Below are positions 34,355 through 59,579 of a DNA stretch of 64,000 nucleotides, in pieces. The DNA comes from an uncultured Selenomonadales bacterium (GTDB lineage Bacteria; Bacillota; Negativicutes; Selenomonadales; Selenomonadaceae), in contig OMYB01000013.1 in the NCBI GenBank assembly GCA_900315155.1, positions 1-64,000 of the forward strand, given 5' to 3'. The position numbers and the translations under genes are program-made. The notes below the pieces were generated by a model. The model was given only the letters and a program-made list of their open reading frames with translations. It was not told the origin of the DNA and ran no database searches. Position 1 is the first letter of the stretch; each line of letters starts with the position of its first letter.

Positions 34355-34438
34355 CTTCACCTCATACCCCCGACGCACCCCGGGAAAACACGGATGATTC
34401 CCCAGGACACGTCTGATAAACACTTCTCTTTATTCTTC

Positions 34439-34489
34439 ATTATAGATTGCAAGCGTTTGCCGGGGTTTTCAGATTTTGAAAATCTTTTC
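34439..34489 (-). promoter_or_regulatory. Galactan-box promoter of GH53a
   Basis: Box 34465-34489, then 20 bp, then TATAAT (34444-34439), minus strand. There is no TTGACA-like -35. Confidence 0.7.
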
Positions 34490-34500
34490 TTGCGGCAAAT

Positions 34501-34546
34501 GGCTCCCTCCGCTGAGGGAGCTGCCCGCAGGGCTGAGGGTGTCTCC
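34501..34546. repeat. Dispersed palindromic repeat, copy 5
   Basis: GGCTCCCTCC-GCTGAGGGAGC with GGGCTGAGGGTGTC. It forms an inverted pair with copy 6 across about 10 bp. Confidence 0.65.
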
Positions 34547-34556
34547 ATAAACTGCT

Positions 34557-34606
34557 AGGACACCTTCAGTCACCTGACGGTGACAGCTCCCTCAGAGAGG
34601 GAGCCT
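34557..34606. repeat. Dispersed palindromic repeat, copy 6
   Basis: GACACCTTCAGTC-ACCTGACGGTGACAGC and TCCCTCAGAGAGGGAGCC. Inverse orientation to copy 5, between the two GH53 genes. Confidence 0.65.
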
Positions 34607-34623
34607 TGGTTTTGATATGTGGT

Positions 34624-36474
34624 TTACTGCTGGCGCACGAATTCGAAATTGTCGAGGGAGCCCCAGGTGCCTGGCTTGGCCTGCATCGTGACGCCGATCG
34701 TGGCTGTGCCGCCTTTGACTTCGATGTTCTCGATGGTGAACGTATGCCAGTCGTTCCACTTCGTGTCCTGAATGCTGGTGCTCTGGCGCTTGCCATTCAC
34801 CTCGCAGAACAGCTCGTATTTGCTCTGGCCGCCGCCACCCTGCGTCGAGACTTTGAGCGTATATTTGCCGTCGGGCAAGTTTTTGAGCGTCTGGCTGGCC
34901 GTAAAGCTGAAAGCCTTGTCACTCCAGTAGTGCATGGCCGTCTGTCCGAGCGCGTCGCCCGTTTTCTGCACGGCATCGACGCAGTTGTCGCCCGTGATCG
35001 TCCAGCCAGCGAGCGAGCCCTGCTCGAAATCGCCGTTCTGGGCGTAGTTGATGTTGTCGTTCACGTCGACGACGCATAGCACGTCATGCTTTTCGCCGTT
35101 ATACGTGACCGTGCCGTCCACGCTGTACTGGCCCTGCGCGTGGTAGACGGGCGCGGGCGTCGTCCAGGTCACGGGCAGCAGCTCCGTGTGCTCGTCGCTG
35201 AACACGACGCGCGCCTCTTTCGGCAGCGCGATGGGGCTCTCCTGCGCACCCTCGGCGCCGAGCGTCTCTACGTATTCGATCGTCACGGGCACGACGGGCT
35301 GCGAGGCGTCGCTGACTTTGCTGAACGTCTCCCAGGACTCGAGTGCCTTGCCCTGCCCATCGAACATGGCGAGGCTCTCCCAGCCGTTGTCGTCGCCGAC
35401 ACCGCCGCCGACGCCCGGGATGGAGTACCAGTCCGGCTCCCAGTAGAAAATGCCGAGGCCGCGGCCGTTCGGTACCTGCGCGACCTTTTCCATAACTGTG
35501 CGCAGACCCGTGGCCTGTCCCTGCACGCTCGACTTGAAGCCGCCCGCGCGCTCCTCCTTCACGCCGTATAGGTTCTCGCAGCGGTCGTGGTTCTCGTTCG
35601 TATAGCCGAACGCCGTCTCCACGACCACGACGTCCTTATTGTAACGCGCGGAAATGTCGTTCATGTTCGCCTGCAGTGCGGCCGGCGTACCGTGCCAGAA
35701 CGGATAGTAGCTGAGGCCGATGATGTCGAAATTGTCCACGCCGTTGTCCTTGATGAGCATGTCAAAGAACGAACGGTATACCGCGTTGTCGCCGCCATCC
35801 GGCAGATGGACCATGAGCTTTGTTTTATGCGTGGGATCGCAGTCGTGTGCGGCCTGCAGGCCTGCCGCCATGAGGCGTGCGAACGTCTTGCCGCCGTCCT
35901 TGGCGGGCAGCTTACCCGCGGGCCAGAGCATGCCGCTCTTGACCTCATTGCCGATCTGCACCATCTCGGGCTGCTGCCCCGCCTGCTGGAACATGCTCAG
36001 TACGTCTTTCGTATATTGGTAGACATCCTTCTCCAGCCGCGCGGCGCTATGGCCCGCCCAGGCCGCCGGCGTCACCTGATGGCCGGGGTCCGCCCACCAG
36101 TCACTGTAGTGGAAGTCGATGAGCACCTTGAGCCCGAGTGCATGCGCGCGCTGCGTGAGCTCGAGGGCGCGTTTCGCATCGACAAAACCACCGCCCTGCG
36201 TCGGGTGGTTGAAAATGCGGAAACGGACCCAGTTCACGCCGTGGTTCTTCATGATCTGCATCTCATCGAGCTGCGTGCCGTCCACATCGTAGTACCGCGC
36301 GCCCGCTTTCTCCATCTCGGGCAGCATCGAGACATCCGCGCCCTTGATGAAATCCGCCGGCAGCCCCGGGATCGGATTCACCTGCACCGCCGCCCCCGCG
36401 AGCGGCATCCCCGCCGCCAGCGAGCCCGCGACCAGCGCACCCAGCACCAAACGTTTCAGCATGTTCCTTTTCAT
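34624..36474 (-). CDS. Secreted endo-beta-1,4-galactanase, GH53 paralogue with Ig-like and CBM61-like domains (GH53b), 616 aa
   Basis: Second galactanase with the same domain order as GH53a: signal peptide (to about Ala28-29, L-A-G-A-A), GH53 barrel (about 35-390; Glu177 in Q-I-G-N-E and Glu286 in V-V-V-E-T-A-F-G-Y), Ig-like domain (about 400-480) and CBM61-like domain (about 485-616, G-D-F-E-Q-G-S-L-A-G-W-T-I-T-G-D). Large parts agree residue by residue with GH53a, so the pair arose by duplication. ATG 36474 has AAGGAG upstream. It is preceded by its own galactan-box promoter. Confidence 0.93.
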   Translation of the reverse strand: MKRNMLKRLVLGALVAGSLAAGMPLAGAAVQVNPIPGLPADFIKGADVSMLPEMEKAGARYYDVDGTQLDEMQIMKNHGVNWVRFRIFNHPTQGGGFVDAKRALELTQRAHALGLKVLIDFHYSDWWADPGHQVTPAAWAGHSAARLEKDVYQYTKDVLSMFQQAGQQPEMVQIGNEVKSGMLWPAGKLPAKDGGKTFARLMAAGLQAAHDCDPTHKTKLMVHLPDGGDNAVYRSFFDMLIKDNGVDNFDIIGLSYYPFWHGTPAALQANMNDISARYNKDVVVVETAFGYTNENHDRCENLYGVKEERAGGFKSSVQGQATGLRTVMEKVAQVPNGRGLGIFYWEPDWYSIPGVGGGVGDDNGWESLAMFDGQGKALESWETFSKVSDASQPVVPVTIEYVETLGAEGAQESPIALPKEARVVFSDEHTELLPVTWTTPAPVYHAQGQYSVDGTVTYNGEKHDVLCVVDVNDNINYAQNGDFEQGSLAGWTITGDNCVDAVQKTGDALGQTAMHYWSDKAFSFTASQTLKNLPDGKYTLKVSTQGGGGQSKYELFCEVNGKRQSTSIQDTKWNDWHTFTIENIEVKGGTATIGVTMQAKPGTWGSLDNFEFVRQQ

Positions 36475-36563: not shown

Positions 36564-36614
36564 ATTATAGTTTGGAAGCATTTACCACCGTTTTCGCATC
36601 CTGAAAAGATTTTC
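36564..36614 (-). promoter_or_regulatory. Galactan-box promoter of GH53b
   Basis: Box 36590-36614, 20 bp, TATAAT (36569-36564), minus strand. Confidence 0.7.
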
Positions 36615-41734: not shown

Positions 41735-41785
41735 AGTATACGAAAAAATCGTTTTTGCGTGTTTTCACGTTCTGAAAAGATTTTC
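41735..41785 (-). promoter_or_regulatory. Galactan-box promoter of lacE
   Basis: Box 41761-41785, 20 bp, TATACT (41740-41735), minus strand. It lies just inside the end of the upstream GH53c gene (stop at 41798). Confidence 0.7.
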
Positions 41786-43163: not shown

Positions 43164-44585
43164 TTACTCCGGCAGCTGGAGTTCGCCGCTGGCGGCCATT
43201 TCTTTATACCAGTACGCGCTCTTTTTCGGGTAGCGCTTCTGCGTCTCGTAGTCGACATAGAACAGGCCGTAGCGTTTGTTGTAGCCGTTGCTCCACGAGA
43301 GCACGTCCATGAGGCTCCAGATATAGTAGCCTTTGACGTTCACGCCCTCGTCGACGGCCTTGAGCAGGGCCTCGAGATGTTTCGTCACGTAGTCGATGCG
43401 CGGCGTGTCGTCGATCTCGCCATCGACGAAGTCATCTTTGTAGCCCATGCCGTTCTCGGAAATGTAGATTTCCGTGACCTCGGGGTAGTATTTCTGGATG
43501 CGCTTCAGCTGGCGATACATGCCCTCGGGGTAGATGGGCCAATCCCAGTCCGTCGTCGGCACCTCGGGGTTTGAGACGCGCGCGCCGATGCCCTGCAGGC
43601 AGAACACGCTCGTGCCCTTCGCACCCGTGCTGTTGTTGACGACCTTGCTCTCGCCGTCGTAGGCCTGGAGGAAGTGGCTGGAGTAGTAGTTCATGCCGAG
43701 GAAGTCCATCTTCGGCGCAGCTTCTTTCAGCGCCTCAAAGTCCTCCGGCTCCGTCACGAGCTTCGCGCCGTTTTTATCCAGAATCTCGTTGATGAGCGCC
43801 ATGACCTCCGGCGTGTATTCGCCCTTAAAGCAGGCATCCATCATGAAGCGGTTGGAAATTGCGTCGTCGAGGTCGCGCGCGTGGATGTTCTCCGGCGTCG
43901 GCGTAATCGGCTCTTTGCCCTCCAGCGTGTGCACGATGCCGATGCGGCCCGGCAGGTTCATGGATTTATAGAGAGTGACCGCCTTTGCATGCGCGACCAT
44001 GAGGTTGTGCTCGATCTGGATGGCCTTGCCGATCTGGAACGTCTCGTTCGGCGGGAAGTTGCCGGCGATGTAGCCGTTCTGCGCGATGGACCACGGCTCG
44101 TTGAACGTCGCCCATTTCTTCACGCGGTCGCCGAAGTGCTCAAAGCAGATTTTCGCGAAGTTCTGGAACTCGTCGATGAGGTCGCGGTTCAGCCAGTGGC
44201 CGTTTTTGTAGAACGGCAGCGGCGTGTCGAAATGATGCAGCGTGACGAACGGCTCGACGCCCTGCGCGATGCACGCGTCGATGAGCTTGTCGTAATAGTC
44301 GAGGCCCGCCTGATTGATTTTGCCTTTGCCCTCCGGCAGGATGCGCGTCCACGAAATCGAGATGCGGATGCCGTTGATGCCGAACTCCTTGCACAGGCGC
44401 AGGTCTTCTTTGTACTGATGATAGAAATCGCTGGCCGGGTCGCCGTGGTAGCGGCTCTCGGGGCGGTTCAGGTACTCGTCCCAGGCGCAGGGGCCGCGGC
44501 CGTCCTCCGTCGTCGCGCCCTCGACCTGATAGGCCGCCGTGGCGCCGCCGAAAATGAAGCCTTTCGGGAATTTCTTCGTCGCCAT
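43164..44585 (-). CDS. lacG: 6-phospho-beta-galactosidase, GH1 (LacG), 473 aa
   Basis: Splits phosphorylated galactobiose or lactose into galactose-6-phosphate and a sugar. The acid/base Glu163 is in T-F-N-E-P, and the nucleophile in Y-I-S-E-N-G (Glu about 373). The phosphate-recognising C-terminal motif S-W-S-N-G-Y-N-K-R-Y-G with a tryptophan in its second position matches LacG. Full-length GH1. It follows lacF after 4 bp and lies in the galactose-6-phosphate part of the operon. Confidence 0.95.
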   Translation of the reverse strand: MATKKFPKGFIFGGATAAYQVEGATTEDGRGPCAWDEYLNRPESRYHGDPASDFYHQYKEDLRLCKEFGINGIRISISWTRILPEGKGKINQAGLDYYDKLIDACIAQGVEPFVTLHHFDTPLPFYKNGHWLNRDLIDEFQNFAKICFEHFGDRVKKWATFNEPWSIAQNGYIAGNFPPNETFQIGKAIQIEHNLMVAHAKAVTLYKSMNLPGRIGIVHTLEGKEPITPTPENIHARDLDDAISNRFMMDACFKGEYTPEVMALINEILDKNGAKLVTEPEDFEALKEAAPKMDFLGMNYYSSHFLQAYDGESKVVNNSTGAKGTSVFCLQGIGARVSNPEVPTTDWDWPIYPEGMYRQLKRIQKYYPEVTEIYISENGMGYKDDFVDGEIDDTPRIDYVTKHLEALLKAVDEGVNVKGYYIWSLMDVLSWSNGYNKRYGLFYVDYETQKRYPKKSAYWYKEMAASGELQLPE

Positions 44586-45990: not shown

Positions 45991-46041
45991 ATTATAGGGA
46001 CTGCCAGGGGCGCTTTGTTTTCACAATTTGAAAATCTTTTC
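45991..46041 (-). promoter_or_regulatory. Galactan-box promoter of lacABFG
   Basis: Box 46017-46041, 20 bp, TATAAT (45996-45991), minus strand. It lies in the 206-bp region shared with the divergent RpiR gene. Confidence 0.75.
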
Positions 46042-46129: not shown

Positions 46130-46942
46130 ATGCTGATCAAGATTGACCATAATTTTCACGAACATCTGACCGAGACCGAGAAGAAGGTCATCAATTTCAT
46201 CAATATGAACGTGGAGAAGATCGCCTCCATGTCCATCAGTGACGTGGCCGATGCGACGTTTTCTTCGCCGGCGACGGTGTCGCGCACAATCAAGAAATGC
46301 GGCATCTCCGGTTTTGCGGAGCTGCGCTATCTGCTCGCGCAGCAGCAGGAAGCACGCACGGATGATACGGATGTCAACGAGATTTTCAATAAATCGCTGC
46401 TCGAGGTCACGAACACGATCGATCACCTCTCGATCGAGGATATCCTCTCCGTCGTCAAGGAGCTGCGCAGCGCAAGCCGCGTGTATCTGCTCTCGCGCGG
46501 CCTGTCGGAGCACGTGGCGCAGGAGTTCGCATTGAAACTGCAGATTCTCGGCTACAATATCTTCGAGAACTCCGATCCGTCCATCATGCGCGAGGTGACG
46601 GCTCACGTCAAACACGATGAGCTCGTGATCATCTTTTCGCTCTCCGGTGAGACACCGGAGCTCCTGAAGGCCGCGGAAAACGCCTCCAGCCTCGGCGCGC
46701 GCATCGTGTGCATCACCTGCGGCTCGCCGATGACGCCGCTCGCGCGTATCGCTCACCTGACGATTTACGGCTACAAGCACCAGCACGTCTCCATCAAGAG
46801 CGTCGATGCGACGTCGCGCCTGCCGCTCTACGTCATCTCGCGCATCCTCATCGACTACCTGACCATGCAGAAAAATCAGGAAGCCGAGCAAAAGCGCAAA
46901 AAGGATGAAGCCTACCGCCGCCAGCATTATTTCCAGGTCTGA
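46130..46942 (+). CDS. MurR/RpiR-family transcriptional regulator, 270 aa
   Basis: An N-terminal HTH (about 1-77, with M-S-I-S-D-V-A-D-A-T-F-S-S-P-A-T-V-S-R-T-I) is joined to a sugar-isomerase (SIS) domain (about 105-245, S-R-G-L-S-E-H-V-A, F-S-L-S-G-E-T) that senses phosphosugars. It is the only regulator in the locus and is divergent from lacABFG, so it is the best candidate to bind the 25-bp galactan box, perhaps as activator since all five promoters lack a -35. GAAAGGA precedes the ATG. Confidence 0.88.
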   Translation: MLIKIDHNFHEHLTETEKKVINFINMNVEKIASMSISDVADATFSSPATVSRTIKKCGISGFAELRYLLAQQQEARTDDTDVNEIFNKSLLEVTNTIDHLSIEDILSVVKELRSASRVYLLSRGLSEHVAQEFALKLQILGYNIFENSDPSIMREVTAHVKHDELVIIFSLSGETPELLKAAENASSLGARIVCITCGSPMTPLARIAHLTIYGYKHQHVSIKSVDATSRLPLYVISRILIDYLTMQKNQEAEQKRKKDEAYRRQHYFQV

Positions 46943-47951: not shown

Positions 47952-49580
47952 ATGAAGGAAATATCCACATCTACCTACAGTTTCCGCCGCTTAAGAGAGC
48001 ACGATTGTCTTTACGTAGACAAAACCAAATACATCTACAAAATGCTGCAGGCCTCCGGTGGCCAATTCTTTTTCTCCCGCCCGCGCCGCTTCGGCAAAAG
48101 CCTGACCGTCTCCACGTTGGAAGCCATATTTAAAGGCGAACGCGAGCTCTTTCACGGGCTTTATCTGGACAGTACTGACTATGACTGGCCCGTGCATCCC
48201 GTCATCCATATCGACTTTACCCGTTGCCCGATGGATACGCTGGCACAGTTGTCCTATTCCCTTTGCCTGCAGCTTTTAGAGATTTACGAATCCTATAAGC
48301 TCGACCCCCCACGCAAAAAAGATGATGCCCCGGTTTTATTCCTGGCACTCATTCAGCAACTTTATAAAAAAACGGGGCAGGGCGTCGTCATCCTGATTGA
48401 CGAATACGACAAACCCATCCTAGAGCACATGAAGACGGCAGAGGACGCGGAAACGTTCCGCAGCTTCAGTGAGAGCTTTTATCAGGTCATCAAGGGCATG
48501 GATGCCTATGAGCATTTCGTTTTCCTTACCGGCGTCACGAAATTTGCCAAAGTCTCCATTTTCAGTAAGCTGAATAATCTGACCGATATCACTGCCGACC
48601 CGGAATATGCCACTATGCTCGGCTACACGCAGGAGGAATTCGAGCAGGCATTTGCCGAACACCTCGATCACCTGCTGGCCACAGGCGTACGCAGTCTCAA
48701 CAAGCAGCCGCTCAACCGGACACAGCTGCTGGCGGAAATCAAGAAATGGTACGATGGCTTTTGCTTCACCGACGGTGCGCCGACCGTCTACAACCCGGTC
48801 TCCGTCGGCAAATTTTTCCAGGGACACGGCCGCTTCCGCAATTACTGGTTTGCAACGGGCACGCCGACTTTCCTCATCGATATTCTCCGCAAGCAGCAGC
48901 TGACGCTGGCCGACCTTGACGGTGCCGTAGTCAGCGACATCGACTTTGAAACCTTTGACGTGGCCCGCCTGGCTGAGGGACAGGCCACCAATGAACAGAT
49001 TTTCCAGATTATGCTCCAGGCAGGCTATCTGACGCTCGACACGGAACAGGCCAGCGGTGCCATGTTCATGTACACGCTGCGCTTCCCGAACTACGAAATC
49101 GAAACCTCTTTCACCGATCAGCTCTCACGCGCCTACCACCCACGCCTCACCTTCAGCAACTATCTGTACCAGCTGATACAGGCCGTCCAAAAGGGTGACA
49201 CGCAGGCCTTCATCAGCTGGCTGAAAGAATACCTGGCCAATATCCCCTACGATATCCAAATCGCACAGGAAAAATACTACCAATCGCTCGTCTACGGCGT
49301 CTTGCTGCTATGCGGTGCCGATATGCAGACGGAGGTCCGCACGAACAAGGGCCGCATCGACGCTGTCCTGAAGTCCCCCAACCATCTCTACATCATCGAG
49401 TTCAAACTGAACCAGTCCGCCGAAACCGGCCTCGCCCAAATTGAGGAAAAGGACTACACCGAGCGCTACCGCCTGCAGGCCCGCGAGAAACACCAGCAGC
49501 TGCACCAGCTCACCATCAACTTTTCCTACGACAAAGACGTACGCAACATCACAGACTGGAAAGAGAGCATAGACGCATAA
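47952..49580 (+). CDS. DUF1703-type AAA-ATPase with C-terminal PD-(D/E)XK nuclease-like domain, 542 aa
   Basis: The predicted AAA-ATPase (PF09820-type) begins F-F-F-S-R-P-R-R-F-G-K-S (about 40-51, P-loop-like) with the Walker B I-L-I-D-E-Y-D-K-P (about 154-162). The C-terminal domain (about 440-520) holds G-R-I-D-A-V-L and Y-I-I-E-F-K-L-N, the D and E-x-K of a PD-(D/E)XK nuclease fold. Such genes are common, multi-copy and of unknown role in Firmicutes and Bacteroidetes. An AGGAGG site precedes the ATG; a TATAAT lies at about 47909. Confidence 0.85.
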   Translation: MKEISTSTYSFRRLREHDCLYVDKTKYIYKMLQASGGQFFFSRPRRFGKSLTVSTLEAIFKGERELFHGLYLDSTDYDWPVHPVIHIDFTRCPMDTLAQLSYSLCLQLLEIYESYKLDPPRKKDDAPVLFLALIQQLYKKTGQGVVILIDEYDKPILEHMKTAEDAETFRSFSESFYQVIKGMDAYEHFVFLTGVTKFAKVSIFSKLNNLTDITADPEYATMLGYTQEEFEQAFAEHLDHLLATGVRSLNKQPLNRTQLLAEIKKWYDGFCFTDGAPTVYNPVSVGKFFQGHGRFRNYWFATGTPTFLIDILRKQQLTLADLDGAVVSDIDFETFDVARLAEGQATNEQIFQIMLQAGYLTLDTEQASGAMFMYTLRFPNYEIETSFTDQLSRAYHPRLTFSNYLYQLIQAVQKGDTQAFISWLKEYLANIPYDIQIAQEKYYQSLVYGVLLLCGADMQTEVRTNKGRIDAVLKSPNHLYIIEFKLNQSAETGLAQIEEKDYTERYRLQAREKHQQLHQLTINFSYDKDVRNITDWKESIDA

Positions 49581-49599
49581 AACTATACAGCACAACGCA

Positions 49600-49626
49600 A
49601 AGGCCCCGCAACTGCGGGGCCTTTGA
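49600..49626. terminator. Terminator between two convergent genes
   Basis: AAGGCCCCGC-AACT-GCGGGGCCTT, followed by T-rich bases; ends 47952-49580 and may also close the NUDIX unit. Confidence 0.75.
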
Positions 49627-49633
49627 CATACTG

Positions 49634-50038
49634 TCATCCTTGTTCACTAGAACGCAATATAGTACCAATTTGTTGCACCAACCCTGCATCGGCTGGCAAC
49701 CAGGCCACGGAAGTTATTTCCTCGGCCCCTAGCCACCGCAGCGCATCGTGCACGGAAAGTGTCGGTTCACCAGCAGCGATGGTGGCCCAATAACAGCGCA
49801 TACTCAGATGAAACGTTGGGTAGTCATACTCCACAATATCCAGTAAATCGCCCGGCACGATTTTGACGTGCAATTCTTCCCGCAGCTCGCGCACGAGCGC
49901 CTGCTGCGGTGTCTCACCGACCTCGACTTTGCCGCCGGGGAATTCCCAGCCGCCTTTGAATTCGCCGTAGTTACGTCTCGTCGCGAGTATTTTATCGCCC
50001 TCGCGTATAACGGCCGCCACGACCTGCACCTGTTTCAT
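49634..50038 (-). CDS. NUDIX hydrolase (MutT type), 134 aa
   Basis: The Nudix box G-G-K-V-E-V-G-E-T-P-Q-Q-A-L-V-R-E-L-R-E-E-L begins near residue 36. The domain matches short MutT proteins with 8-oxo-dGTP or oxidised-nucleotide preference. It follows the helicase stop after 23 bp on the same strand, so it belongs to the three-gene cassette; alternatives (RNA cap hydrolysis, ADP-ribose) cannot be excluded. Confidence 0.88.
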   Translation of the reverse strand: MKQVQVVAAVIREGDKILATRRNYGEFKGGWEFPGGKVEVGETPQQALVRELREELHVKIVPGDLLDIVEYDYPTFHLSMRCYWATIAAGEPTLSVHDALRWLGAEEITSVAWLPADAGLVQQIGTILRSSEQG

Positions 50039-50061
50039 CGTACACTATGCTCCTTCAACAC

Positions 50062-53000
50062 TCAGCCCTCACTGCTTGTCAGATAATCGTATATATCCTC
50101 ACGCACGGGCACATCGAGATGCCATTGCAATTCTACCACATCATCGCCAGTCCCTGCCATCTGTTCCTGCCGCGCGTCCACATTCGTCATGCGACCCAGG
50201 TAGTAAAAGCTCTTGGCGCCATCGTTGTCGTCTTTGTTTTTACGCACGAAAAGGTCAATCGGCGTTTGCAGTTCCCGCGCGTGCATAAAACGCTGCACGT
50301 CATCCGAAGCCAACGTGCGCTTACCTTTGGACATAGCCACGAGTCGCTGGCGATTGACAAAGTGGTCCTGATAATTTATTGAATCCTGAATATCCGCCGC
50401 CTTGTCATAGTTGATAAACACGGGGAAGGTATTCGTCCGCTTGTCATATTTGTAGCCGCCCATATTGAGCGGCACGATGTTCTGTTCCCAATTCAGGATG
50501 CGGCACACATCCTCGTACTCATATTTTTGATAGAGACTAAAGCCGCTGTCCTCATAGGGATTGCTATAGCAGTCCTGATAACGCTTGAGCCCAAACGCCA
50601 GCGTCTCCTGCAGCAGCTGCTGGAATGCATCACTAGCCAACATTCCCTGATATGCGGGGGCGATGTCATAGTCACCATTGGCATTGGCCTGCAAGAATAC
50701 GCAATGCTTAAAACTCCCCTTACCGGAACCAGTCAGGAAATTACCCGTCATAATGTTGATGACGTTCTGTCGGGCAAAAGTATTGAGCTCCAGCTGATAG
50801 TCTACCCGCAAGCGGTTACTGAGTTGTGCCAACACGTTCTGTGGTGACTGTAACAAAATCTGCAGCAAGAGCAATTCATGCGGCCGCTTGCCTTCGCCAA
50901 ATTTCAGGGAAATAAAATGCAGTACCTCCTCCTGCGCTGACGTCAGCACTGTTTTGTACTCCTTCTCGTATTTTTTCAACAGCATATAATATGAGCCCAG
51001 CGATTTATTGCGGAAAATGCAGGTCACATCCATCTCACCATAGCGGTCAAAATCCAAAATGCTCGGGATACGGCCCAGCTTCTGCCGCAGTTGCTGGTAG
51101 CTTTCTTTGATACGTTTGACATCGCCTAGCCGCGCATGGTCGATGGAAGCGAAAATACGCTGCTTGGCAATTTTATCAAAATGAATCGTCGAGGCGCCAG
51201 GGATAATGCGCGAGCCCTCCATAAGGCAACGGCGAATATTGTCTTTATTGAAACTTCGGTCGCCAGTTAAAGCCATCGGTATCATGAAATTGTTATCGAG
51301 ATAGTTACCGATAAAATCGAGGATAACCACATACTCCTTGCCTTGTGCCTTGCGCAAACCACGCCCCAGCTGCTGCACAAAAACAATCGGACTCTGCGTC
51401 GGGCGCAGCATGATGACCTGATTGATTTCCGGTACATCCACGCCCTCGTTGAAGATATCCACGGAGAAAATATAGTCGAGCTGGTCGTCACACGTATCAC
51501 TGACCAAGCGCTCAATATAGTTTTCACGCTGCTCCTGCGTCGTCTCGCCACCGATGCTGACCGTATGCCAACCGCGCGCGTTGAATTTACGCGAAAGTTC
51601 CGCGGCCTCCCGCCGACTGCTGCAGAAAATCAAGCCCTTGACACGCTCACCGCTAAAGCCATAAAAATCTGCTTTTTGCAAAATAGCCGTCACGCGCTCG
51701 TCACTCGTCAAGCGCTTAAATAGTTCGCCGGCTGTATCCTCAGTCTCATCGCCTTCTGCCGTAGCTTGTACAGACTTATCCTTATCATAAACGGCAATAT
51801 CCGTAATGCCAAAGTAATGGAACGGGCAGAGCAAATCCTCCTCCAGCGCCTGCTGCAACCGAATTTCATAAGCGATATTGTGGTCAAACAGAGCGTATAT
51901 ATCGAAGCCATCCGTACGCTCCGGACTGGCCGTCATGCCAAGGTAAAACTGCGGCCTAAAATAATCCATGATACGCTGGTAACTCGCGGCACCGGCACGG
52001 TGTACTTCATCGATGATAATAAAATCGAAGGCCTCGCGGGCAAAACTATATAGCACATGTTCCTGTGCCATCGTCTGCATGGTGGCAAAGACATACTGCG
52101 CTCCGCTTTCCTTGCTATTACCTGAGAGCAAGCCCATACTGGCATCTGGCCCACAGACGCGACGGAAACTACGCAGTGCCTGCTTCGCTATTTGCTCACG
52201 GTGCACGAGAAACAACATCCGCCGTGGCTTGGCATCCCGCACCGCGAACGCGGCCGCATACGTTTTACCCGTGCCTGTAGCCGAAATGAGCAACGCCCGC
52301 GCGGCTTGCTGGGCCCGTAAATCACGCATGCTTTGGATGAATTCCGTTTGCATGGTATTCGGTTTTAAAGCTGGTGCAGTACGCCCGGTATGATAGGCAG
52401 CCCCTGCTGCCTCAGCCACATACTCACCATCGACTTCGTCCGGTCCTTCATTTTGCTTAGGCAATAACGTAGGCCGAGGCGCCTCTCGTGCCGCCCGCCT
52501 GGCCTTTTCCTGCCTATAAAGCGCTTGATAATCCGTGAAAAAGGCCGCAAATTCCTGCGTATGTTCATCCTGCCAGAGTTGCTGGAAGCGCTTGATGACA
52601 TCATAGGTATACTCCCCCTGCGTCAAGGAGACAACCTTGATATTCCATTCCTCATTTTTCGTCAAGGCATTGGCCGTCAAGTTAGCACTGCCGATGAGCA
52701 TACGGTAGACATCGCCCCGCCGGAAAATATAGCCCTTGGTATGAAAGCCGACTTCACTTTGCGTCCAATACATGCGTACGTCAATATTTTCAAATGCCTG
52801 CAAGCGTTGCAACGCCTCTGGGTCACTAAACCACAAATAGTTGGTGGTCAAGACTTTTCCAGGTACACCCTTGGCCGCTAATTCCTCCAAGATAGGCAAC
52901 AAAGCAATCAGGCCGCTCATAGTCACGAAAGCAACGCTGAACACAAACTCTTCGCAATGCGCCAGCTCACGCTCTAGCGCATCCAGCACCTTCATGCCCT

Positions 53001-53115
53001 TACGGTAGTCGTTATAGACAAACTGCTGGCGAAACTCCTCGTCCGAACGATAATTACGGTCCACCAAAGCCGTCCGCCCGCCCTTTAACAACGCCCGCAA
53101 GACATCCTGCTGCAT
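50062..53115 (-). CDS. PLD-like / SF2 helicase / DUF3427 protein, 1017 aa
   Basis: N-terminus (about 25-190): phospholipase-D-like nuclease half with F-H-T-K-G-Y-I-F and I-G-S-A-N-L-T (HxK and GSxN motifs). Middle (about 260-620): SF2 helicase with S-A-T-G-T-G-K-T (Walker A), I-I-D-E-V-H-R (DEVH) and L-G-R-G-L-R-K (motif VI). The C-terminus (about 650-1000) is DUF3427-type. A HNH gene lies upstream by 51 bp and a NUDIX gene downstream. Domain combination suggests DNA-damaging defence or repair. Base composition appears lower in GC than the neighbours. Confidence 0.87.
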   Translation of the reverse strand: MQQDVLRALLKGGRTALVDRNYRSDEEFRQQFVYNDYRKGMKVLDALERELAHCEEFVFSVAFVTMSGLIALLPILEELAAKGVPGKVLTTNYLWFSDPEALQRLQAFENIDVRMYWTQSEVGFHTKGYIFRRGDVYRMLIGSANLTANALTKNEEWNIKVVSLTQGEYTYDVIKRFQQLWQDEHTQEFAAFFTDYQALYRQEKARRAAREAPRPTLLPKQNEGPDEVDGEYVAEAAGAAYHTGRTAPALKPNTMQTEFIQSMRDLRAQQAARALLISATGTGKTYAAAFAVRDAKPRRMLFLVHREQIAKQALRSFRRVCGPDASMGLLSGNSKESGAQYVFATMQTMAQEHVLYSFAREAFDFIIIDEVHRAGAASYQRIMDYFRPQFYLGMTASPERTDGFDIYALFDHNIAYEIRLQQALEEDLLCPFHYFGITDIAVYDKDKSVQATAEGDETEDTAGELFKRLTSDERVTAILQKADFYGFSGERVKGLIFCSSRREAAELSRKFNARGWHTVSIGGETTQEQRENYIERLVSDTCDDQLDYIFSVDIFNEGVDVPEINQVIMLRPTQSPIVFVQQLGRGLRKAQGKEYVVILDFIGNYLDNNFMIPMALTGDRSFNKDNIRRCLMEGSRIIPGASTIHFDKIAKQRIFASIDHARLGDVKRIKESYQQLRQKLGRIPSILDFDRYGEMDVTCIFRNKSLGSYYMLLKKYEKEYKTVLTSAQEEVLHFISLKFGEGKRPHELLLLQILLQSPQNVLAQLSNRLRVDYQLELNTFARQNVINIMTGNFLTGSGKGSFKHCVFLQANANGDYDIAPAYQGMLASDAFQQLLQETLAFGLKRYQDCYSNPYEDSGFSLYQKYEYEDVCRILNWEQNIVPLNMGGYKYDKRTNTFPVFINYDKAADIQDSINYQDHFVNRQRLVAMSKGKRTLASDDVQRFMHARELQTPIDLFVRKNKDDNDGAKSFYYLGRMTNVDARQEQMAGTGDDVVELQWHLDVPVREDIYDYLTSSEG

Positions 53116-53166
53116 ATCCAGTCAACTCCTTATATGTTAACAGCGGTTAGCAAAACTATAGAGCCA

Positions 53167-53919
53167 CTAACTCTCACGCTCTCCCAGCGCCACCCGCTCA
53201 AATTCATCCTTGCCCAAGGCCAAGCCACTCTGCGCGAAACGCTCGCGCCGCGTCTCGTAGATATGGTCTACGATATCCCGTCGTTCAGCCATGAGCCCAT
53301 GATGTAGCTGGCGATGGCAAACGGGGCACAGGCAGATGACATTGGCATAGACGTCGAGACTGTGCCCGAACTCTGCCTGCTGTCCCAAAGGGATAATATG
53401 GTGCGCCTCCATGTATGGCTCATGCGTGGCCTCTGCGATAAAGGTCCGGTGCTCCGGATGAAGTTCACATTGGTAGCCCGCCGCCGCGATAGTCTGTGCG
53501 CGCAAAATACCCGAACGCCGCCACACCTGATACTCGATGTGTGCAGGCTCTGCCACGGCCATCGGCGCGTCCAGCGCCATGAGGCTCTCCGGCTGCCCGA
53601 GCATCCCTTCACCCTGCACGAACTCGTTGTAGCGCCGATAACCTGCACTGTACATCTGGTGCCCACGCCGGTTCAGTTGCATAAAATCCTCATCCTGAGA
53701 CAGTATTCCCCATCGCGCATGCAGTTGCTCAATGCTCCCTACCTCGTAAATATCACGCTGAACGAGATGGCGCTCACGCATGTAGCGTGAAATCGTGTTG
53801 AGCGCGTCCTGATAATGCCGTACCGACGACGCTGACAGCCCACGCACTTTTGTCAAATACTGTGCAAAATAGGCCTGTAGCTCCGCGCCGTAGGCAAAAG
53901 GCACCTTCCGCTCTTCCAT
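53167..53919 (-). CDS. HNH endonuclease with integrase-N-like domain, 250 aa
   Basis: The N-terminal 90 residues resemble the SAM-like DNA-binding domain of tyrosine recombinases (L-S-A-S-S-V-R-H-Y-Q-D-A-L-N-T-I). The C-terminal part carries a HNH core (E-A-H-H-I-I-P-L, V-Y-A-N-V-I-C-L-C-P-V-C-H-R-Q-L-H-H) and an earlier C-E-L-H. ATG 53919 has GGGAGGTGG upstream. First gene of the HNH/helicase/NUDIX cassette. Confidence 0.85.
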   Translation of the reverse strand: MEERKVPFAYGAELQAYFAQYLTKVRGLSASSVRHYQDALNTISRYMRERHLVQRDIYEVGSIEQLHARWGILSQDEDFMQLNRRGHQMYSAGYRRYNEFVQGEGMLGQPESLMALDAPMAVAEPAHIEYQVWRRSGILRAQTIAAAGYQCELHPEHRTFIAEATHEPYMEAHHIIPLGQQAEFGHSLDVYANVICLCPVCHRQLHHGLMAERRDIVDHIYETRRERFAQSGLALGKDEFERVALGERES

Positions 53920-54121
53920 GGCTCCACCTCCCTTACAGACAGACAAAAATGTTAGCAACTAGAATTTATCTTCGACATGCGTCCCGGAAAATCCTCCTAT
54001 TTGCACATACGAGCCGCCATTATTTGTAATGTGCTTCTGATGGTCAATGTGCTACTTACAGACTATAATGAGTTAGCAAGTAAATTAATTAGAACACATT
54101 GTAGTACAGGAGGATGATTGT

Positions 54122-54628
54122 ATGCACAGTGCAATTTTTACAGTAATATCCTTGCTTGACGAAGCCCCCACTACTCCAACTGACCTTAAGCGCCTACACA
54201 GAGAATTTACCTCCCCCGATGTAGACGAGCTACTTGAAAGCATGGGCGATAGGGCTGACTACGTGCAGTGTTCTGAAGACAGCGGGAATTGGCATTTGAC
54301 TGACCTGGAACATTGTTTAGAGCACCATCCATTCATCGACGTGCAACCGGGCCATGTCTTCCACTTTTCTAAGGATAGGAGCTACATCCGTACCGATCTA
54401 CTCAAACGTTTAGCCAAAGCTGAACAATTCTTGGCCGCGCCCCCTCACGATTATGGGCTGTTATTCGATATTAACAGAATTATTAATGAAGATGACTCTT
54501 TCTATATCAATGTTGTCGATACGATGAATAATCCGATGCACTTTATGGCTCTCGGAGAATTCCTGCTGGCAGATATGAATGTTGACATGACTTATATGAT
54601 TGCAGCTGTCAATGATTATCATTGCTGA
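54122..54628 (+). CDS. Uncharacterised protein, 168 aa
   Basis: An AGGAGGATG site lies 7 bp before the ATG, and a TATAAT lies about 55 bp upstream. The protein is acidic and His-rich, with no signal peptide or membrane segment; S-E-D-S-G-N-W-H-L-T-D-L-E-H and P-F-I-D-V-Q-P-G-H-V-F-H-F are distinctive. I know no family. It is in the opposite strand to both neighbours and lower in GC, as expected of accessory DNA. Confidence 0.65.
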   Translation: MHSAIFTVISLLDEAPTTPTDLKRLHREFTSPDVDELLESMGDRADYVQCSEDSGNWHLTDLEHCLEHHPFIDVQPGHVFHFSKDRSYIRTDLLKRLAKAEQFLAAPPHDYGLLFDINRIINEDDSFYINVVDTMNNPMHFMALGEFLLADMNVDMTYMIAAVNDYHC

Positions 54629-54663
54629 GCCAACATAATGCACAGTGTCTATTGCGTAGTATT

Positions 54664-55869
54664 TTATTTATCCACCAGCCACCGCAGCACGTTCCGTTTC
54701 TGGATGCCGTTGTAGTTGGCCTCGGGCTCGATTTCGTCCAGCGTCAGCAGGTATTTCGGGTACTGGTCACCGGTCTGCTGCAGGGGGCACAGTTCGCGGG
54801 CCAGTACGTCGGGGTCGAGGGTACTCAGTGCCACCTGATAGTAGGCCAGCCCCTGGGGCGTTTCAGCGACGAAGTCAATTTCGCCCTTAGGCAGCTGGCC
54901 TACGTAGACGCGGTAGCCACGCTGCAGCAGTTCCAGATACACAACGTTTTCCAGTATATGCCCCGTGTCCCGCCCGGTCGCATTGACGAGCAGCTGGCGC
55001 AGGGCCGTGTCGACGAGGTAATATTTCGCGTTGATTTTGAGCAGGCTCTTGCCCCGCACGTCGTAGCGGTCGCACTGATAAATCAGCAGACTGTCCCGCA
55101 GCCCCTGCAGGTAGCGCTCGACCGTCTTGTTATCCATTTTTCGCCCGATGCTCGTCAGGGTGTTGGCAATCTTGCTGGGGGAAATCAGACTGCCGATGTT
55201 AGCGGCCAGATATTTCATAATATTGTCGATGACCGTGGGCGCCCCACTCCCCAGCCGCGTCAGCGTATCCTTGACGAGTATCGTGTTGTAGATGCCCTGC
55301 AGGTATTCGCGTACGCCCGCCTCGTCGGCCTCCACCTGCGTGAGATAAGGGAACGAGCTCTGCTGCAGATAACGCTGATAGAGCACCGCAGGCATTGTCT
55401 GCGCTGGCATTGACAAGCCACTGCAAAACTCCTTGAACGACAAGGGCAGCATACGCAGCTCCACATAGCGTCCGGAGAGCAGCGTTGCCAGTTCGCCCGA
55501 CATAAAGAAGCCGTTGGACCCGGTGATATAGAGGTCAACATTCCCCTTGATAAAGAGGCTGTCTACAGCCTTTTCAAACTGCGGCACGTGCTGTATTTCA
55601 TCGAGAAAAACGTACGTGCGTTCACCCTCGGTCAGATGCTTGCAGACGTAGTCATACAGGGCATGATACTCCTGCAGAGTCTCAAAGGCCAAATCTTCAA
55701 AATTGATGGTCAGCATGCGCTCCGCGGGCACGCCCTCGGCTGCCAGTTGCTCACGGAACAGCTGAAACAGGGTAGACTTGCCGCAGCGCCGCACCCCGGA
55801 GACGACCTTGATAATCTGGTGATCACGGTGACGGTTGAGAAAAGCCATATAATGTGGTCTATTAATCAT
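54664..55869 (-). CDS. AAA-ATPase with DUF4143 C-terminal domain, 401 aa
   Basis: Walker A is G-V-R-R-C-G-K-S-T (about 26-34) and Walker B Y-V-F-L-D-E-I-Q (about 91-98), with sensor G-S-N-G. The C-terminal DUF4143 (about 215-390) includes K-Y-Y-L-V-D-T-A-L-R and G-E-I-D-F-V-A (nuclease-like D and E). Such genes occur in many copies in anaerobes; function unknown. Its promoter sits inside an inverted-repeat operator. Confidence 0.87.
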   Translation of the reverse strand: MINRPHYMAFLNRHRDHQIIKVVSGVRRCGKSTLFQLFREQLAAEGVPAERMLTINFEDLAFETLQEYHALYDYVCKHLTEGERTYVFLDEIQHVPQFEKAVDSLFIKGNVDLYITGSNGFFMSGELATLLSGRYVELRMLPLSFKEFCSGLSMPAQTMPAVLYQRYLQQSSFPYLTQVEADEAGVREYLQGIYNTILVKDTLTRLGSGAPTVIDNIMKYLAANIGSLISPSKIANTLTSIGRKMDNKTVERYLQGLRDSLLIYQCDRYDVRGKSLLKINAKYYLVDTALRQLLVNATGRDTGHILENVVYLELLQRGYRVYVGQLPKGEIDFVAETPQGLAYYQVALSTLDPDVLARELCPLQQTGDQYPKYLLTLDEIEPEANYNGIQKRNVLRWLVDK

Positions 55870-56169: not shown

Positions 56170-57096
56170 TTACAGTTGCGTAACGGTGATTTGTGGCAGG
56201 AGGGACTCGACTGTCTCCTTACGGACGAAGCCGCTCTCAGCCTCCATGGCGTTCGCCGTGCCGCAGGCAGCGGCGAGGCGCAGGAGCTCCGGCACGGGCA
56301 GGTGCCGGGCAAAGCCGGCCGCCGCGCCGGCGACGAAGGAGTCACCCGAGCCCACGGGGTTCACACAGTCGATGTGCGGCACCGTGATGCGGAACAGGCC
56401 CTCTTTGCAACCGGCGATAGAGCCAGCCGCGCCGAGCGAGACGACGGCGAGGGGAATGCCATCGTCCAGGAAGGCCTGTACCTCGCGCACGACCGCGGCC
56501 TCATCTTCGACGGGGCGGCCGCGCAGGGCCTCGATCTCATCTTTATTGGGTTTGATGAAATCGGGCTTTGCTTTTATACCCTCCTCGAGACGCTTGCCGC
56601 TCGTATCGAGCAGGAACGGCTTTGCTGCCGCATGCGTCTCGCGGATGAGTTCTGCATAAAAGGTATCGGGGACGCCGCGTGGCATGCTGCCGGACGCCAC
56701 GACGACGTCGGCTTTTGCCAGCAGGGCACGGAACTTCCCGCGGAAGGCCGCCAGCTCGTCGGGAGAGATGGTGGGGCCAGGCTCGAGAATCTCCGTCTGG
56801 GCGCCATCCTCCGTGATGATGGCGAGGCACGAGCGCGTCTCACCCGCCACGGGGACGAAATCGCCCCGGATACCGTAGTCACGGACACGTTCTGCGATAA
56901 ACTCGCCCGGCTTGCCGCCGAGCCAGCCCGTCACGAGCGTGTCTTCGCCGAGAATCGTATCGACATTGGCCACATGCAGGCCTTTGCCGCCCGGCGTGTT
57001 ATCGACCGCGTCCGCGCGCTGGACTTCACCTTTGACGAGGTCTTTGAGCGTGTAGCGCTTGTCGATGGAGGCGTTCAGGTTCAGTACGAGAATCAT
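56170..57096 (-). CDS. lacC: Tagatose-6-phosphate kinase (LacC/1-PFK family), 308 aa
   Basis: Phosphorylates tagatose-6-phosphate to tagatose-1,6-bisphosphate. PfkB-family features: L-N-A-S-I-D-K-R-Y (about 7-15), G-G-K-G-L-H-V-A (about 36-43), S-G-S-M-P-R-G-V (about 133-140), K-P-N-K-D-E (about 179-184) and the catalytic V-G-S-G-D-S-F (about 253-259). A 1-phosphofructokinase is the alternative; the neighbours lacD-like aldolase and GH1 make LacC the better name. Confidence 0.88.
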   Translation of the reverse strand: MILVLNLNASIDKRYTLKDLVKGEVQRADAVDNTPGGKGLHVANVDTILGEDTLVTGWLGGKPGEFIAERVRDYGIRGDFVPVAGETRSCLAIITEDGAQTEILEPGPTISPDELAAFRGKFRALLAKADVVVASGSMPRGVPDTFYAELIRETHAAAKPFLLDTSGKRLEEGIKAKPDFIKPNKDEIEALRGRPVEDEAAVVREVQAFLDDGIPLAVVSLGAAGSIAGCKEGLFRITVPHIDCVNPVGSGDSFVAGAAAGFARHLPVPELLRLAAACGTANAMEAESGFVRKETVESLLPQITVTQL

Positions 57097-57134: not shown

Positions 57135-57989
57135 TCAATAGCGGTTCTTGCTGAGGCAGACCTCAATCTTATGCTGCACGACCTTCTTCATGGCCTCTTT
57201 GCCCGGCGTCATGTACTTGCGCGGGTCGTTGGCCTCCGGATGCTCCTTGAAGAAAGCCTTGACGGCATTCGCGAACGGGATCTTCAGATCCGTTGCGATG
57301 TTGACCTTGCAGATGCCGAGCGTGATGGCCTTCGAGACGAGCTCGTCCGGGACATCGGAGGCACCGTGCAGGACCAAGGGGATTTCGACCTTGCTGCGGA
57401 TCTTCTCGAGGCGGTCGAAATCGAGATGCGGACGGCCTTTGTACAGGCCATGTGCCGTGCCGATGGCGACGGCGAGGCTGTCGATGCCCGTCTCCGCGAC
57501 GTAGCGGACGGCATCATCCGGATCCGTGTACGCGCTCTCGGCGTCAGAAACCTCGACGTTATCCTCGCGGCCGACGAGCTTGCCGAGCTCAGCCTCGACC
57601 GTTGCGCCGCAGGTGTGTGCGAATTCGACAACCTTCTGGACCTTGGCGACGTTCTCCTCGTACGGGAGGCGGGACGCATCGATCATGACGCTGCGGCAGC
57701 CGGCGGCAATCGTCTCCTCGATCTGCTGTACATCCTCGTGATGATCGAGATGGAACGACATCGGGATGTCGTATTTCTCCATGGCTGCGCCGACGAGCGC
57801 GACGAGGTAGTCCTTGTCTGCGTACTCGACCGTGGACGGCGTTGCGGCGATGATGACCGGGGAACGCATCTCGGCAGCCGTGGAAACGACGACCTGCAGC
57901 GTCTCGAGGTTGTGGATGTTGAACGCCGGGACCGCGTAGTGGCCCGCCTGTGCATCGAGCAGCATCTGTTTCGTGTTGTGAAGTTTCAT
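57135..57989 (-). CDS. Class II tagatose-1,6-bisphosphate aldolase (GatY/KbaY type), 284 aa
   Basis: Splits tagatose-1,6-bisphosphate into DHAP and glyceraldehyde-3-phosphate. The class II pattern is clear: Y-A-V-P-A-F-N (about 18-24), zinc ligand His in S-F-H-L-D-H-H (about 79-85), G-x-V-E-A-E-L-G, G-T-A-H-G (about 179-183), H-G-A-S (about 207-210) and N-I-A-T-D (about 229-233). A fructose-1,6-bisphosphate aldolase cannot be excluded. ATG 57989 (GGAGAT site). It lies between lacC and the variant GH1 gene. Confidence 0.9.
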   Translation of the reverse strand: MKLHNTKQMLLDAQAGHYAVPAFNIHNLETLQVVVSTAAEMRSPVIIAATPSTVEYADKDYLVALVGAAMEKYDIPMSFHLDHHEDVQQIEETIAAGCRSVMIDASRLPYEENVAKVQKVVEFAHTCGATVEAELGKLVGREDNVEVSDAESAYTDPDDAVRYVAETGIDSLAVAIGTAHGLYKGRPHLDFDRLEKIRSKVEIPLVLHGASDVPDELVSKAITLGICKVNIATDLKIPFANAVKAFFKEHPEANDPRKYMTPGKEAMKKVVQHKIEVCLSKNRY

Positions 57990-58005: not shown

Positions 58006-59502
58006 TTATCCCTGAATGCCCTGCTGGGCACCCTCTGAATCCATAGTTGCATCGGCGTCCGGATCCGCATGGAAAGCCGTGCCGAGGCCGCTGAGCGTCA
58101 GCATGATGCGGCGTTTCGAGAAATCCCGCAGCCAGTGCGCACTCTTTTTGGCATAGCGCCGCCCGTCCGCCCGGTCGACGTAGAACAGGCCGTAGCGTTT
58201 CTCATAGCCGTTCGTCCAGGACATGCAGTCCACGAGCGACCAGATAAAGAACCCGCGCACATCGACGCCGTCCTCGATCGCATCGAGAACCGCCGAGATG
58301 TGCTGACGCAGGTAGTCGATGCGGTCATCGTCCTCCACGGTGCCCTTTTCGAGCTCTTCATGCATCCCGAGCCCGTTCTCCGTGATGAGGATGGGCTTTG
58401 CGGGGTACTCGCGATGGATGCGCATGAGCATGTCGTAGAGCCCCTGCGGGAAAATCGACCAATCCCAGTCGGTGGTCGGTATCTCCGAGCGGGCAACGCG
58501 CCGCCCGATACCGGCGAGTGCATACGTCGTCGTGCCTTTCTCGCCTGCGCCGTTGTGGTGGATGACATTGCCGCCCTGCCATGCCGTCGTGAAATGGCTC
58601 GCATAGTAGTTGACGCCGAGGAAATCCAGCGAAGATGCCGCCACCTGGAGGAACGAGGCCTCCTGCGGATCCTGCATGAAATACCCGTTGCGCTGCGGGA
58701 CCAGCACCGTGTTGATGGCCTGCTGCGTATCCTCGCGCGATCTGCCATCCAGGACGAGGTCGAGCAGGAAGTGGTTCGAGAAAGCATCGTCGAGCCAGGC
58801 TGCGCGCCGGTCCGCCTCCGTATCCTGCAGTGGATAGACGGGCTCCGCACGGTGCGCGATGCCGATCTTTCCGCCCGGGTACATGCCCTTGTAGAGCATC
58901 ACGGCCCGGCTGTGCGCGACGGTCATGCGGTAAAGCTGATGCAGCGCATCCTCGGGAGCAAAATAATTGCCCGGCGGGAACAGGCCCGTGATGTGCGTGT
59001 GGAACGACTCCGTGACGGGATCTTTGAATGTCAGCCAATGATGGACGCGGTCGCCGAAATGCGTAAAGCAGAGCTTGGCATAGGCGAGGTAGCGTTCCGT
59101 CGTCAGCGGGTCGAGCCAGCCGCCGCGGTCCGCGAGATCGGCGGGCAGGTCAAACTGGTAGAGCGCGACGTAGGGCTCGATGTCCGCCTCGAGGCACGCA
59201 TCGATGACCGCATCGTAGAACTTCAGCCCTTCCGGGTTCGCCTGCCCTTCCTCGTCCTGCAGGCGCGTCCAGGCAAAGGAGATCTGCAGGCTTTTGATGC
59301 CGTACTGGCGGCAGTTTTCGATATCCTCGCGCCACCGGTGGTAGCTGTCGCTCGCGATCTCCGCATCGAACAGGTTCGACGGGCGCTGCAGCCAGCTGTC
59401 CCATGCTGCGGGGATGCGTCCGCCCTCATGGAGCCCTCCTTCGACCTGATAGGCCGCTGACGTGGCACCGAGCACGAAATCCCGTGGTAATGTACGGATC
59501 AT
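58006..59502 (-). CDS. GH1 family protein with altered acid/base motif, 498 aa
   Basis: GH1 barrel related to LacG (S-W-T-N-G-Y-E-K-R-Y-G phosphate-recognition motif, nucleophile region I-T-E-N-G). The acid/base block, normally T-F/L-N-E-P, reads T-F-K-D-P at residues 158-162, so Asn is Lys160 and the catalytic Glu is Asp161. This is certain in the sequence (AAA GAT CCC). The protein might act slowly, on activated substrates or not at all as a hydrolase. It carries an extra C-terminal 25 residues. First gene of a unit with aldolase and lacC, behind a galactan box. Confidence 0.92.
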   Translation of the reverse strand: MIRTLPRDFVLGATSAAYQVEGGLHEGGRIPAAWDSWLQRPSNLFDAEIASDSYHRWREDIENCRQYGIKSLQISFAWTRLQDEEGQANPEGLKFYDAVIDACLEADIEPYVALYQFDLPADLADRGGWLDPLTTERYLAYAKLCFTHFGDRVHHWLTFKDPVTESFHTHITGLFPPGNYFAPEDALHQLYRMTVAHSRAVMLYKGMYPGGKIGIAHRAEPVYPLQDTEADRRAAWLDDAFSNHFLLDLVLDGRSREDTQQAINTVLVPQRNGYFMQDPQEASFLQVAASSLDFLGVNYYASHFTTAWQGGNVIHHNGAGEKGTTTYALAGIGRRVARSEIPTTDWDWSIFPQGLYDMLMRIHREYPAKPILITENGLGMHEELEKGTVEDDDRIDYLRQHISAVLDAIEDGVDVRGFFIWSLVDCMSWTNGYEKRYGLFYVDRADGRRYAKKSAHWLRDFSKRRIMLTLSGLGTAFHADPDADATMDSEGAQQGIQG

Positions 59503-59528
59503 AGGCCTCTCTCCTTTCTACAGTGAAT

Positions 59529-59579
59529 ATTATAGGGTTTCCCGCGTTCCGCTTGTTTTCACCTTTTGGAAATGTTTTC
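59529..59579 (-). promoter_or_regulatory. Galactan-box promoter of the GH1-aldolase-lacC unit
   Basis: Box 59555-59579 (middle TTTCC instead of TTTTC), 20 bp, TATAAT (59534-59529), minus strand. Confidence 0.7.

What the first reader, a model, noticed from the sequence alone, without database searches (positions are those of the whole stretch)
58006..59502. Expressed-looking GH1 enzyme with K-D instead of N-E at the acid/base site
Residues 158-162 read T-F-K-D-P where GH1 enzymes have T-F/L-N-E-P. LacG at 43164-44585 keeps N-E-P (Glu163). The frame is intact over 498 residues, the nucleophile motif I-T-E-N-G and the phosphate-binding motif S-W-T-N-G-Y-E-K-R-Y remain, and the gene has a galactan-box promoter and sits before lacD/lacC-type genes. 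A decayed gene would not be expected to keep that. It may be a sensor or regulator of phospho-galactosides, a transferase, or an enzyme for substrates with good leaving groups.
Basis: seen in the sequence. Interest (0 to 1): 0.65.

Follow-up and report, generated by a model that had tools for sequence, protein, structure and literature searches.

The report
Acid/base-less LacG paralogue in galactan operon
Several rumen-type bacteria keep, next to a normal sugar-splitting enzyme, a second copy whose cutting residue has been replaced in all nine species found; the gene is co-regulated, intact and under selection, so it probably binds the same phosphorylated sugar for a different job.

Summary
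Observation confirmed. The gene lies on the minus strand (59502..58006, 498 aa) and reads T158-F-K-D-P162 where LacG has T-F-N-E-P. It is not a private mutation or a sequencing error. Nine Selenomonadaceae genomes of four genera carry a monophyletic orthologous clade: eight have K-D, with synonymous codon changes, and the ninth has A-S. None keeps the acid/base Glu, the Asn before it, or LacG's Arg72. All nine keep the nucleophile Glu375 and the Gal6P phosphate site (Ser428, Lys435, Tyr437, plus Trp429). In all nine the gene directly precedes a GatY-type tagatose-bisphosphate aldolase and a PfkB kinase, and a TGAAAAC-type box also found at lacA and at the EIIC gene lies upstream. That box occurs four times exactly in the 2.49-Mb genome, all in this window. 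dN/dS is 0.10-0.32. A normal LacG co-occurs in eight of nine. I favour a conserved pseudo-phospho-beta-galactosidase that binds Gal6P or 6-phospho-galactosides without normal hydrolysis. The main rival is a myrosinase-like enzyme for anionic or good-leaving-group aglycones. Partner and substrate are unknown. New variant of a known kind.

The parts
58006..59502 (-). LacG paralogue with K160-D161 at the acid/base site (498 aa, GH1 fold)
59020..59025 (-). codons K160 (AAA) and D161 (GAT) in place of Asn-Glu
   Evidence: positions counted from the gene start at 59502; codons; motif site 59015-59037
57135..57989 (-). GatY-type class II tagatose-bisphosphate aldolase, 16 bp after the stop of the paralogue
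56170..57096 (-). PfkB-family hexose kinase (tagatose-6-phosphate kinase type)
59555..59579 (-). regulatory box GAAAACATTTCCAAAAGGTGAAAAC in front of the paralogue
59529..59534 (-). TATAAT -10-like element
   Evidence: sequence
59509..59517 (-). Shine-Dalgarno-like AAAGGAGAG
   Evidence: sequence
46017..46041 (-). same box in front of lacA, between lacA and the rpiR-type gene
41761..41785 (-). same box in front of the PTS EIIC gene
34465..34489 (-). same box in front of a second GH53-like gene (33185-34354)
43164..44585 (-). normal LacG with N162-E163
46130..46942 (+). RpiR-family regulator with SIS domain, candidate reader of the box
   Evidence: binding is inferred

Best explanation
It is a conserved pseudo-phospho-beta-galactosidase: an old LacG paralogue that still folds as GH1 and still has the galactose-6-phosphate pocket, but has lost the residues that make normal retaining hydrolysis work (acid/base Glu160, 2-OH-binding Asn159, nucleophile-positioning Arg72; L. 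lactis numbering). Shown: conserved loss of these residues, conserved ligand and phosphate residues, intact frames under purifying selection, fixed place before the aldolase and kinase, shared promoter box. Inferred: it binds Gal6P or 6-phospho-galactobiose without efficient hydrolysis when galactan is used, and acts by binding, most likely as a regulatory partner or ligand-dependent scaffold of the LacG-aldolase-kinase pathway. Which partner is not known.
For: Nine orthologues, four genera: Glu160 0/9, Asn159 0/9, Arg72 0/9, against 29/29 for each in LacG. Gln19, Trp347, Glu375, Trp421, Ser428, Trp429, Lys435 and Tyr437 are kept 9/9. K-D in eight with AAA/AAG and GAT/GAC turnover; A-S in one. 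dN/dS 0.10-0.32. Order paralogue-aldolase-kinase 9/9. Box upstream 9/9; four exact sites in the genome, all in this window. Clade support 100/99. Model matches LacG, Z 53.3, 1.6 A over 464 residues. A normal LacG is in 8 of 9 of these genomes.
Against: No activity or binding data exist. The nucleophile Glu375 is invariant, which a pure binder need not keep (though it also touches the sugar). Asp161 could still be a weak acid. K-D and Arg218 are held very constant in eight members, as a new chemistry would require. G002 shows no LacG, so there the paralogue might have to act alone, though its contig ends inside the kinase gene and its LacAB are also missing.
Confidence: 0.55

Rival explanations
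1. Myrosinase-like enzyme: it still uses Glu375 as nucleophile on 6-phospho-beta-galactosides whose aglycone is anionic or a good leaving group and needs no strong acid. Lys160 and Arg218 would bind the negative aglycone.
For: Glu375 and the phosphate site are kept 9/9. Myrosinases replaced the proton-donor Glu by Gln and gained a basic pocket residue that binds the sulfate (PMC3947992). This clade gained Lys160 and Arg218; the latter aligns with the LNL-type Asn at the end of beta-5 in other GH1 enzymes, a place described as close to subsite +1 in TmBglA (PMC9113129).
Against: Arg72, which in GH1 positions the nucleophile (own knowledge), is lost 9/9. The G006 member has Ala-Ser and Gly218, so no basic pair, in the same operon slot. 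No source of such an aglycone is evident in the galactan operon.
Confidence: 0.22
2. Ordinary 6-phospho-beta-galactosidase or transglycosidase in which Asp161 replaces Glu as acid/base, with Lys160 compensating for the lost Arg72.
For: Asp is a carboxylate; K-D is held in eight members with synonymous turnover. Loss of Arg72 and gain of Lys160 could compensate each other (inference).
Against: The shorter Asp reaches less far, Asn159 is lost, and one member has Ser. NCBIfam lacG cut-offs are not reached by the three members tested, while LacG passes. A normal LacG is already present in eight of nine.
Confidence: 0.13
3. Accessory subunit of the neighbouring GatY-type aldolase, replacing GatZ/KbaZ.
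For: Gap of 16 bp in the window, same order in 9/9. No GatZ/KbaZ (PF08013) in 12 genomes; E. coli control positive. GatZ raises aldolase activity in E. coli (PMC11907403).
Against: G018 and G026 have the aldolase without GatZ and without the paralogue, so it is not generally needed. GatZ is an aldolase relative, not a GH1.
Confidence: 0.07
4. Decaying gene or sequencing error.
For: The clade evolves faster than LacG (65% against 90% identity for the same genome pair); G225 has a garbled stretch of about 35 residues.
Against: Nine genomes, intact frames, dN/dS well below 1, conserved box and order.
Confidence: 0.03

Closest known systems
LacG, 6-phospho-beta-galactosidase (GH1; L. lactis, PDB 1pbg to 4pbg)
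   Same: Fold over the whole length (Z 53.3), Gln19, Glu375, Trp421, Ser428, Trp429, Lys435, Tyr437 (and Asn297, Tyr299 in eight of nine), operon context
   Different: Arg72, Asn159 and Glu160 are replaced; His116 is Gln in three members; score below both NCBIfam lacG cut-offs; clade-specific HRAE-VYP motif and RRIMLT tail
Gan1D and dual 6-phospho-beta-galactosidases/glucosidases (PDB 4ze4)
   Same: GH1, phospho-galactoside context, Trp at the galacto-specificity position
   Different: 33-34% identity; Gan1D is a working enzyme whose E170Q form (4ze5) is listed as a catalytic mutant
Plant myrosinases (GH1)
   Same: Natural loss of the acid/base Glu and a basic residue in the pocket (PMC3947992)
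   Different: Glu to Gln, not Asp; thioglucosides; eukaryotic; no phosphate site
Klotho-type GH1 pseudoenzymes of animals (own knowledge, not tested here)
   Same: GH1 fold used for binding after loss of catalytic Glu
   Different: Receptor proteins; unrelated context

Membership tests
Glycoside hydrolase family 1 (fold and sequence family) | Match to Pfam PF00232 above cut-off | tested here: met
   436 bits against cut-off 22.6; three orthologues 371-455 bits
Glycoside hydrolase family 1 (fold and sequence family) | GH1 (beta/alpha)8 fold | tested here: met
   Model pLDDT 81, pTM 0.85; LacG 3pbg Z 53.3, 1.6 A, 464 residues
LacG 6-phospho-beta-galactosidase | Acid/base Glu preceded by Asn (N159-E160) | tested here: not met
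   K-D in 8, A-S in 1 of 9; 29/29 LacG have N-E
LacG 6-phospho-beta-galactosidase | Nucleophile Glu375 | tested here: met
   9/9
LacG 6-phospho-beta-galactosidase | 6-phosphate site Ser428, Lys435, Tyr437 and galacto-specific Trp429 | tested here: met
   9/9 by alignment; role of Trp429 from PMC10360150, phosphate site from own knowledge
LacG 6-phospho-beta-galactosidase | NCBIfam lacG cut-offs (TIGR01233, NF010036) | tested here: not met
   478 < 561 and 534 < 610 bits; window LacG 639 and 733 pass
LacG 6-phospho-beta-galactosidase | Hydrolysis of 6-phospho-beta-galactosides | not testable with these tools
   needs purified protein
Myrosinase-like GH1 | Acid/base Glu lost, nucleophile kept, basic residue in the pocket | tested here: inconclusive
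   Glu lost and nucleophile kept 9/9, Lys160 and Arg218 in 8/9; their position in the pocket was inferred by alignment only
Pseudoenzyme (conserved, catalytically deficient paralogue) | Catalytic motif lost across orthologues while the gene is maintained by selection | tested here: met
Pseudoenzyme (conserved, catalytically deficient paralogue) | Absence of the ancestral activity and presence of a binding function | not testable with these tools
   needs assay

The most novel reading that the evidence does not exclude
A GH1 clade with a re-wired active site (Lys160-Asp161-Arg218 in place of Asn-Glu-Thr, Arg72 given up) that uses the Gal6P pocket for a reaction other than hydrolysis, for example transfer to or from an anionic acceptor such as phosphate, feeding the tagatose-6-phosphate pathway.
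Probability: 0.08. Interest if true: 0.8.

Novelty: new variant of a known kind. Interest (0 to 1): 0.55.

Why it matters
Bacterial GH1 proteins are routinely annotated as working glycosidases. Here a whole clade has dropped the acid/base residue yet is kept as the first gene of a sugar-phosphate operon under its own regulon box. It offers a compact bacterial system in which the working enzyme and its disabled paralogue sit in one regulon, so the function of a glycosidase pseudoenzyme (or a switch of chemistry) can be tested by knock-out and assay.

Tried and rejected
Private mutation or sequencing error: rejected by eight further genomes. K-D as a general feature of Selenomonadaceae GH1: rejected; none of the other full-length GH1 proteins in the relatives set lacks N-E. 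Wider spread: 0 further clade members in 398 genomes of the phylum at E<=1e-185, 0 K-D motifs outside Selenomonadaceae in 380 class genomes, none in viral contigs. GatZ replacement: weak, because G018 and G026 have neither GatZ nor the paralogue but do have the aldolase. Age of the duplication: the tree puts the clade as sister to all LacG including L. lactis, but the AU test does not reject an origin inside Negativicutes (p 0.083), and long branches make this unsure. Literature searches for a bacterial GH1 or LacG pseudoenzyme found none in the open-access papers held; subscription papers are not covered.

Full report
What is there. The ORF is on the minus strand, 59502 to 58006, 498 aa. It matches GH1 (PF00232, 436 bits). 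Its closest solved relative is L. lactis LacG. It reads T158-F-K160-D161-P162; the LacG of the same window reads T160-F-N162-E163-P164. ITENG (Glu375) and SWTNGYEKRY (428-437) are intact.

It is a clade, not a mutation. A genome-contig scan and tblastn gave three orthologues with K-D: L038 (UBA2897, 66%), L039 (RUG179, 63%) and L040 (a Selenomonas MAG, 56%). A motif scan found K-D in 5 of 189 Selenomonadaceae genomes and in none of the other genomes among 380 of the class. The three g25 members have F-L-T-M-K-D-P, with Phe in place of the Trp that the motif scan required, which is why that scan missed them. Eight have K-D, with codons AAA or AAG and GAT or GAC, so the residues are held while synonymous sites turn over. 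The ninth, G006, sits in the same operon slot and has Ala-Ser, with ECG for ENG. No member has Asn-Glu. The strict phylum search found no more.

Which residues changed. Against 29 LacG sequences including L. lactis: Arg72 is lost in 9/9 (Q, E, G, T), Asn159 in 9/9 (K or A), Glu160 in 9/9 (D or S), His116 in 3/9 (Q). Gln19, Trp347, Glu375, Trp421, Ser428, Trp429, Lys435 and Tyr437 are kept in 9/9. The roles of Asn297 and Trp429 in galacto-specificity come from PMC10360150; the phosphate-site roles and the role of Arg72 next to the nucleophile are from own knowledge. Clade-specific gains are Arg218 in an HRAE-x-VYP motif at the end of strand beta-5 and an RRIMLT-type tail. Arg218 aligns with the Asn of the LNL motif of other GH1 proteins; in TmBglA the residues N222-G224 at the end of beta-5 are close to subsite +1 (PMC9113129). 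Arg218 is present in the eight K-D members and is Gly in the A-S member, so it may pair with Asp161; that is inference from one event.

Structure. AlphaFold2 on a 14-sequence alignment gave pLDDT 81 and pTM 0.85; the last 29 residues have low confidence. The best PDB match is LacG 3pbg, Z 53.3, 1.6 A over 464 residues (Foldseek). So the fold is unchanged; the differences are in the active site. NCBIfam agrees: the window protein misses both lacG cut-offs (534 < 610; 478 < 561), while LacG passes (733; 639).

The gene is maintained. dN/dS is 0.10-0.28 for the close g25 pairs and 0.16-0.32 for more distant pairs (the distant values are near saturation). It evolves faster than LacG: 65% against 90% identity between the window and G001. 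G225 has a garbled stretch of about 35 residues, probably compensating frameshifts or an assembly error.

Context. In 9/9 genomes the order is paralogue, GatY-type aldolase, PfkB kinase on one strand, with a 16-bp gap in the window. A normal LacG is present in 8/9, with LacA, LacB and IIA seen beside it wherever the fetched contig reaches that far. G002 shows neither LacG nor a close LacB, but its contig ends inside the kinase gene. G003, a fourth species of the genus, has no paralogue and only a 49-residue remnant of LacG, which fits loss of the whole pathway (that genome is 82% complete). The promoter region carries a box close to TGAAAAC-N-TTTYCAAAA-NN-TGAAAACA followed by TATAAT in all nine genomes (G006 differs at a few positions), and the same box lies in front of lacA and EIIC. 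In the window's 2.49-Mb genome the pattern has four exact sites, all in this window: in front of a GH53-like gene, EIIC, lacA and the paralogue. The RpiR-type SIS-domain regulator beside lacA is the obvious candidate to bind it (inference). The paralogue is therefore one of very few promoters of a dedicated galactan regulon.

Origin. The clade is monophyletic (100/99) and sister to all LacG, L. lactis included. A duplication within Negativicutes is not rejected (AU p 0.083). Long branches make the depth uncertain.

How it most likely works. Loss of the acid/base Glu, of the Asn before it and of Arg72 together, in every member, while the Gal6P pocket is retained, points to a protein that binds Gal6P or 6-phospho-galactosides without efficient hydrolysis. 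The G006 member shows that the K-D pair itself is not needed for whatever keeps the gene in the operon, unless G006 has changed function. Co-regulation with LacG and its place before the aldolase and kinase point to a role within the pathway: partner, ligand-dependent scaffold, or sensor; these are the usual roles listed for pseudoenzymes (PMC10211241). The partner is unknown. The strongest rival is a myrosinase-like enzyme: myrosinases lost the same Glu and gained a basic pocket residue (PMC3947992). An accessory role for the aldolase like that of GatZ (PMC11907403) was considered; GatZ is indeed absent, but so it is in genomes with the aldolase and without the paralogue.

Verdict. Function remains to be measured. 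New variant of a known kind: a bacterial GH1 pseudoenzyme-like clade inside a phospho-galactoside regulon.

Noticed in passing
window 47952-55869: Between the PHP gene and the kinase gene lies an insert with an AAA-ATPase/nuclease-type gene, NUDIX, a type IV methyl-directed restriction-type helicase (PADLOC mREase_IV, 685 bits), an HNH protein and a PDC-S01 ATPase; in G001 (L048) this gap is only about 1 kb and holds a 192-aa ORF instead.
   Followed up: partly
window 33185-36453: Two further GH53-like genes upstream of the EIIC gene, with regulatory boxes at 34465-34489 (exact) and 36590-36614 (two mismatches); the galactan regulon extends there.
   Followed up: no
L091:9418-9564 (G003:C2): A lone 49-residue C-terminal remnant of LacG (75% identical) with no other lac gene in 18 kb, a relic of a lost lac cluster in the same genus.
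   Followed up: no
L085:1397-2866 (G225): The G225 clade member has about 35 garbled residues with a 9-residue insertion between otherwise very similar flanks, probably paired frameshifts or an assembly error.
   Followed up: no
L050:3114-4541 (G006): The clade member with Ala-Ser at the acid/base site, Cys after the nucleophile Glu, and a very long branch; it may be a further step of the same functional change.
   Followed up: partly
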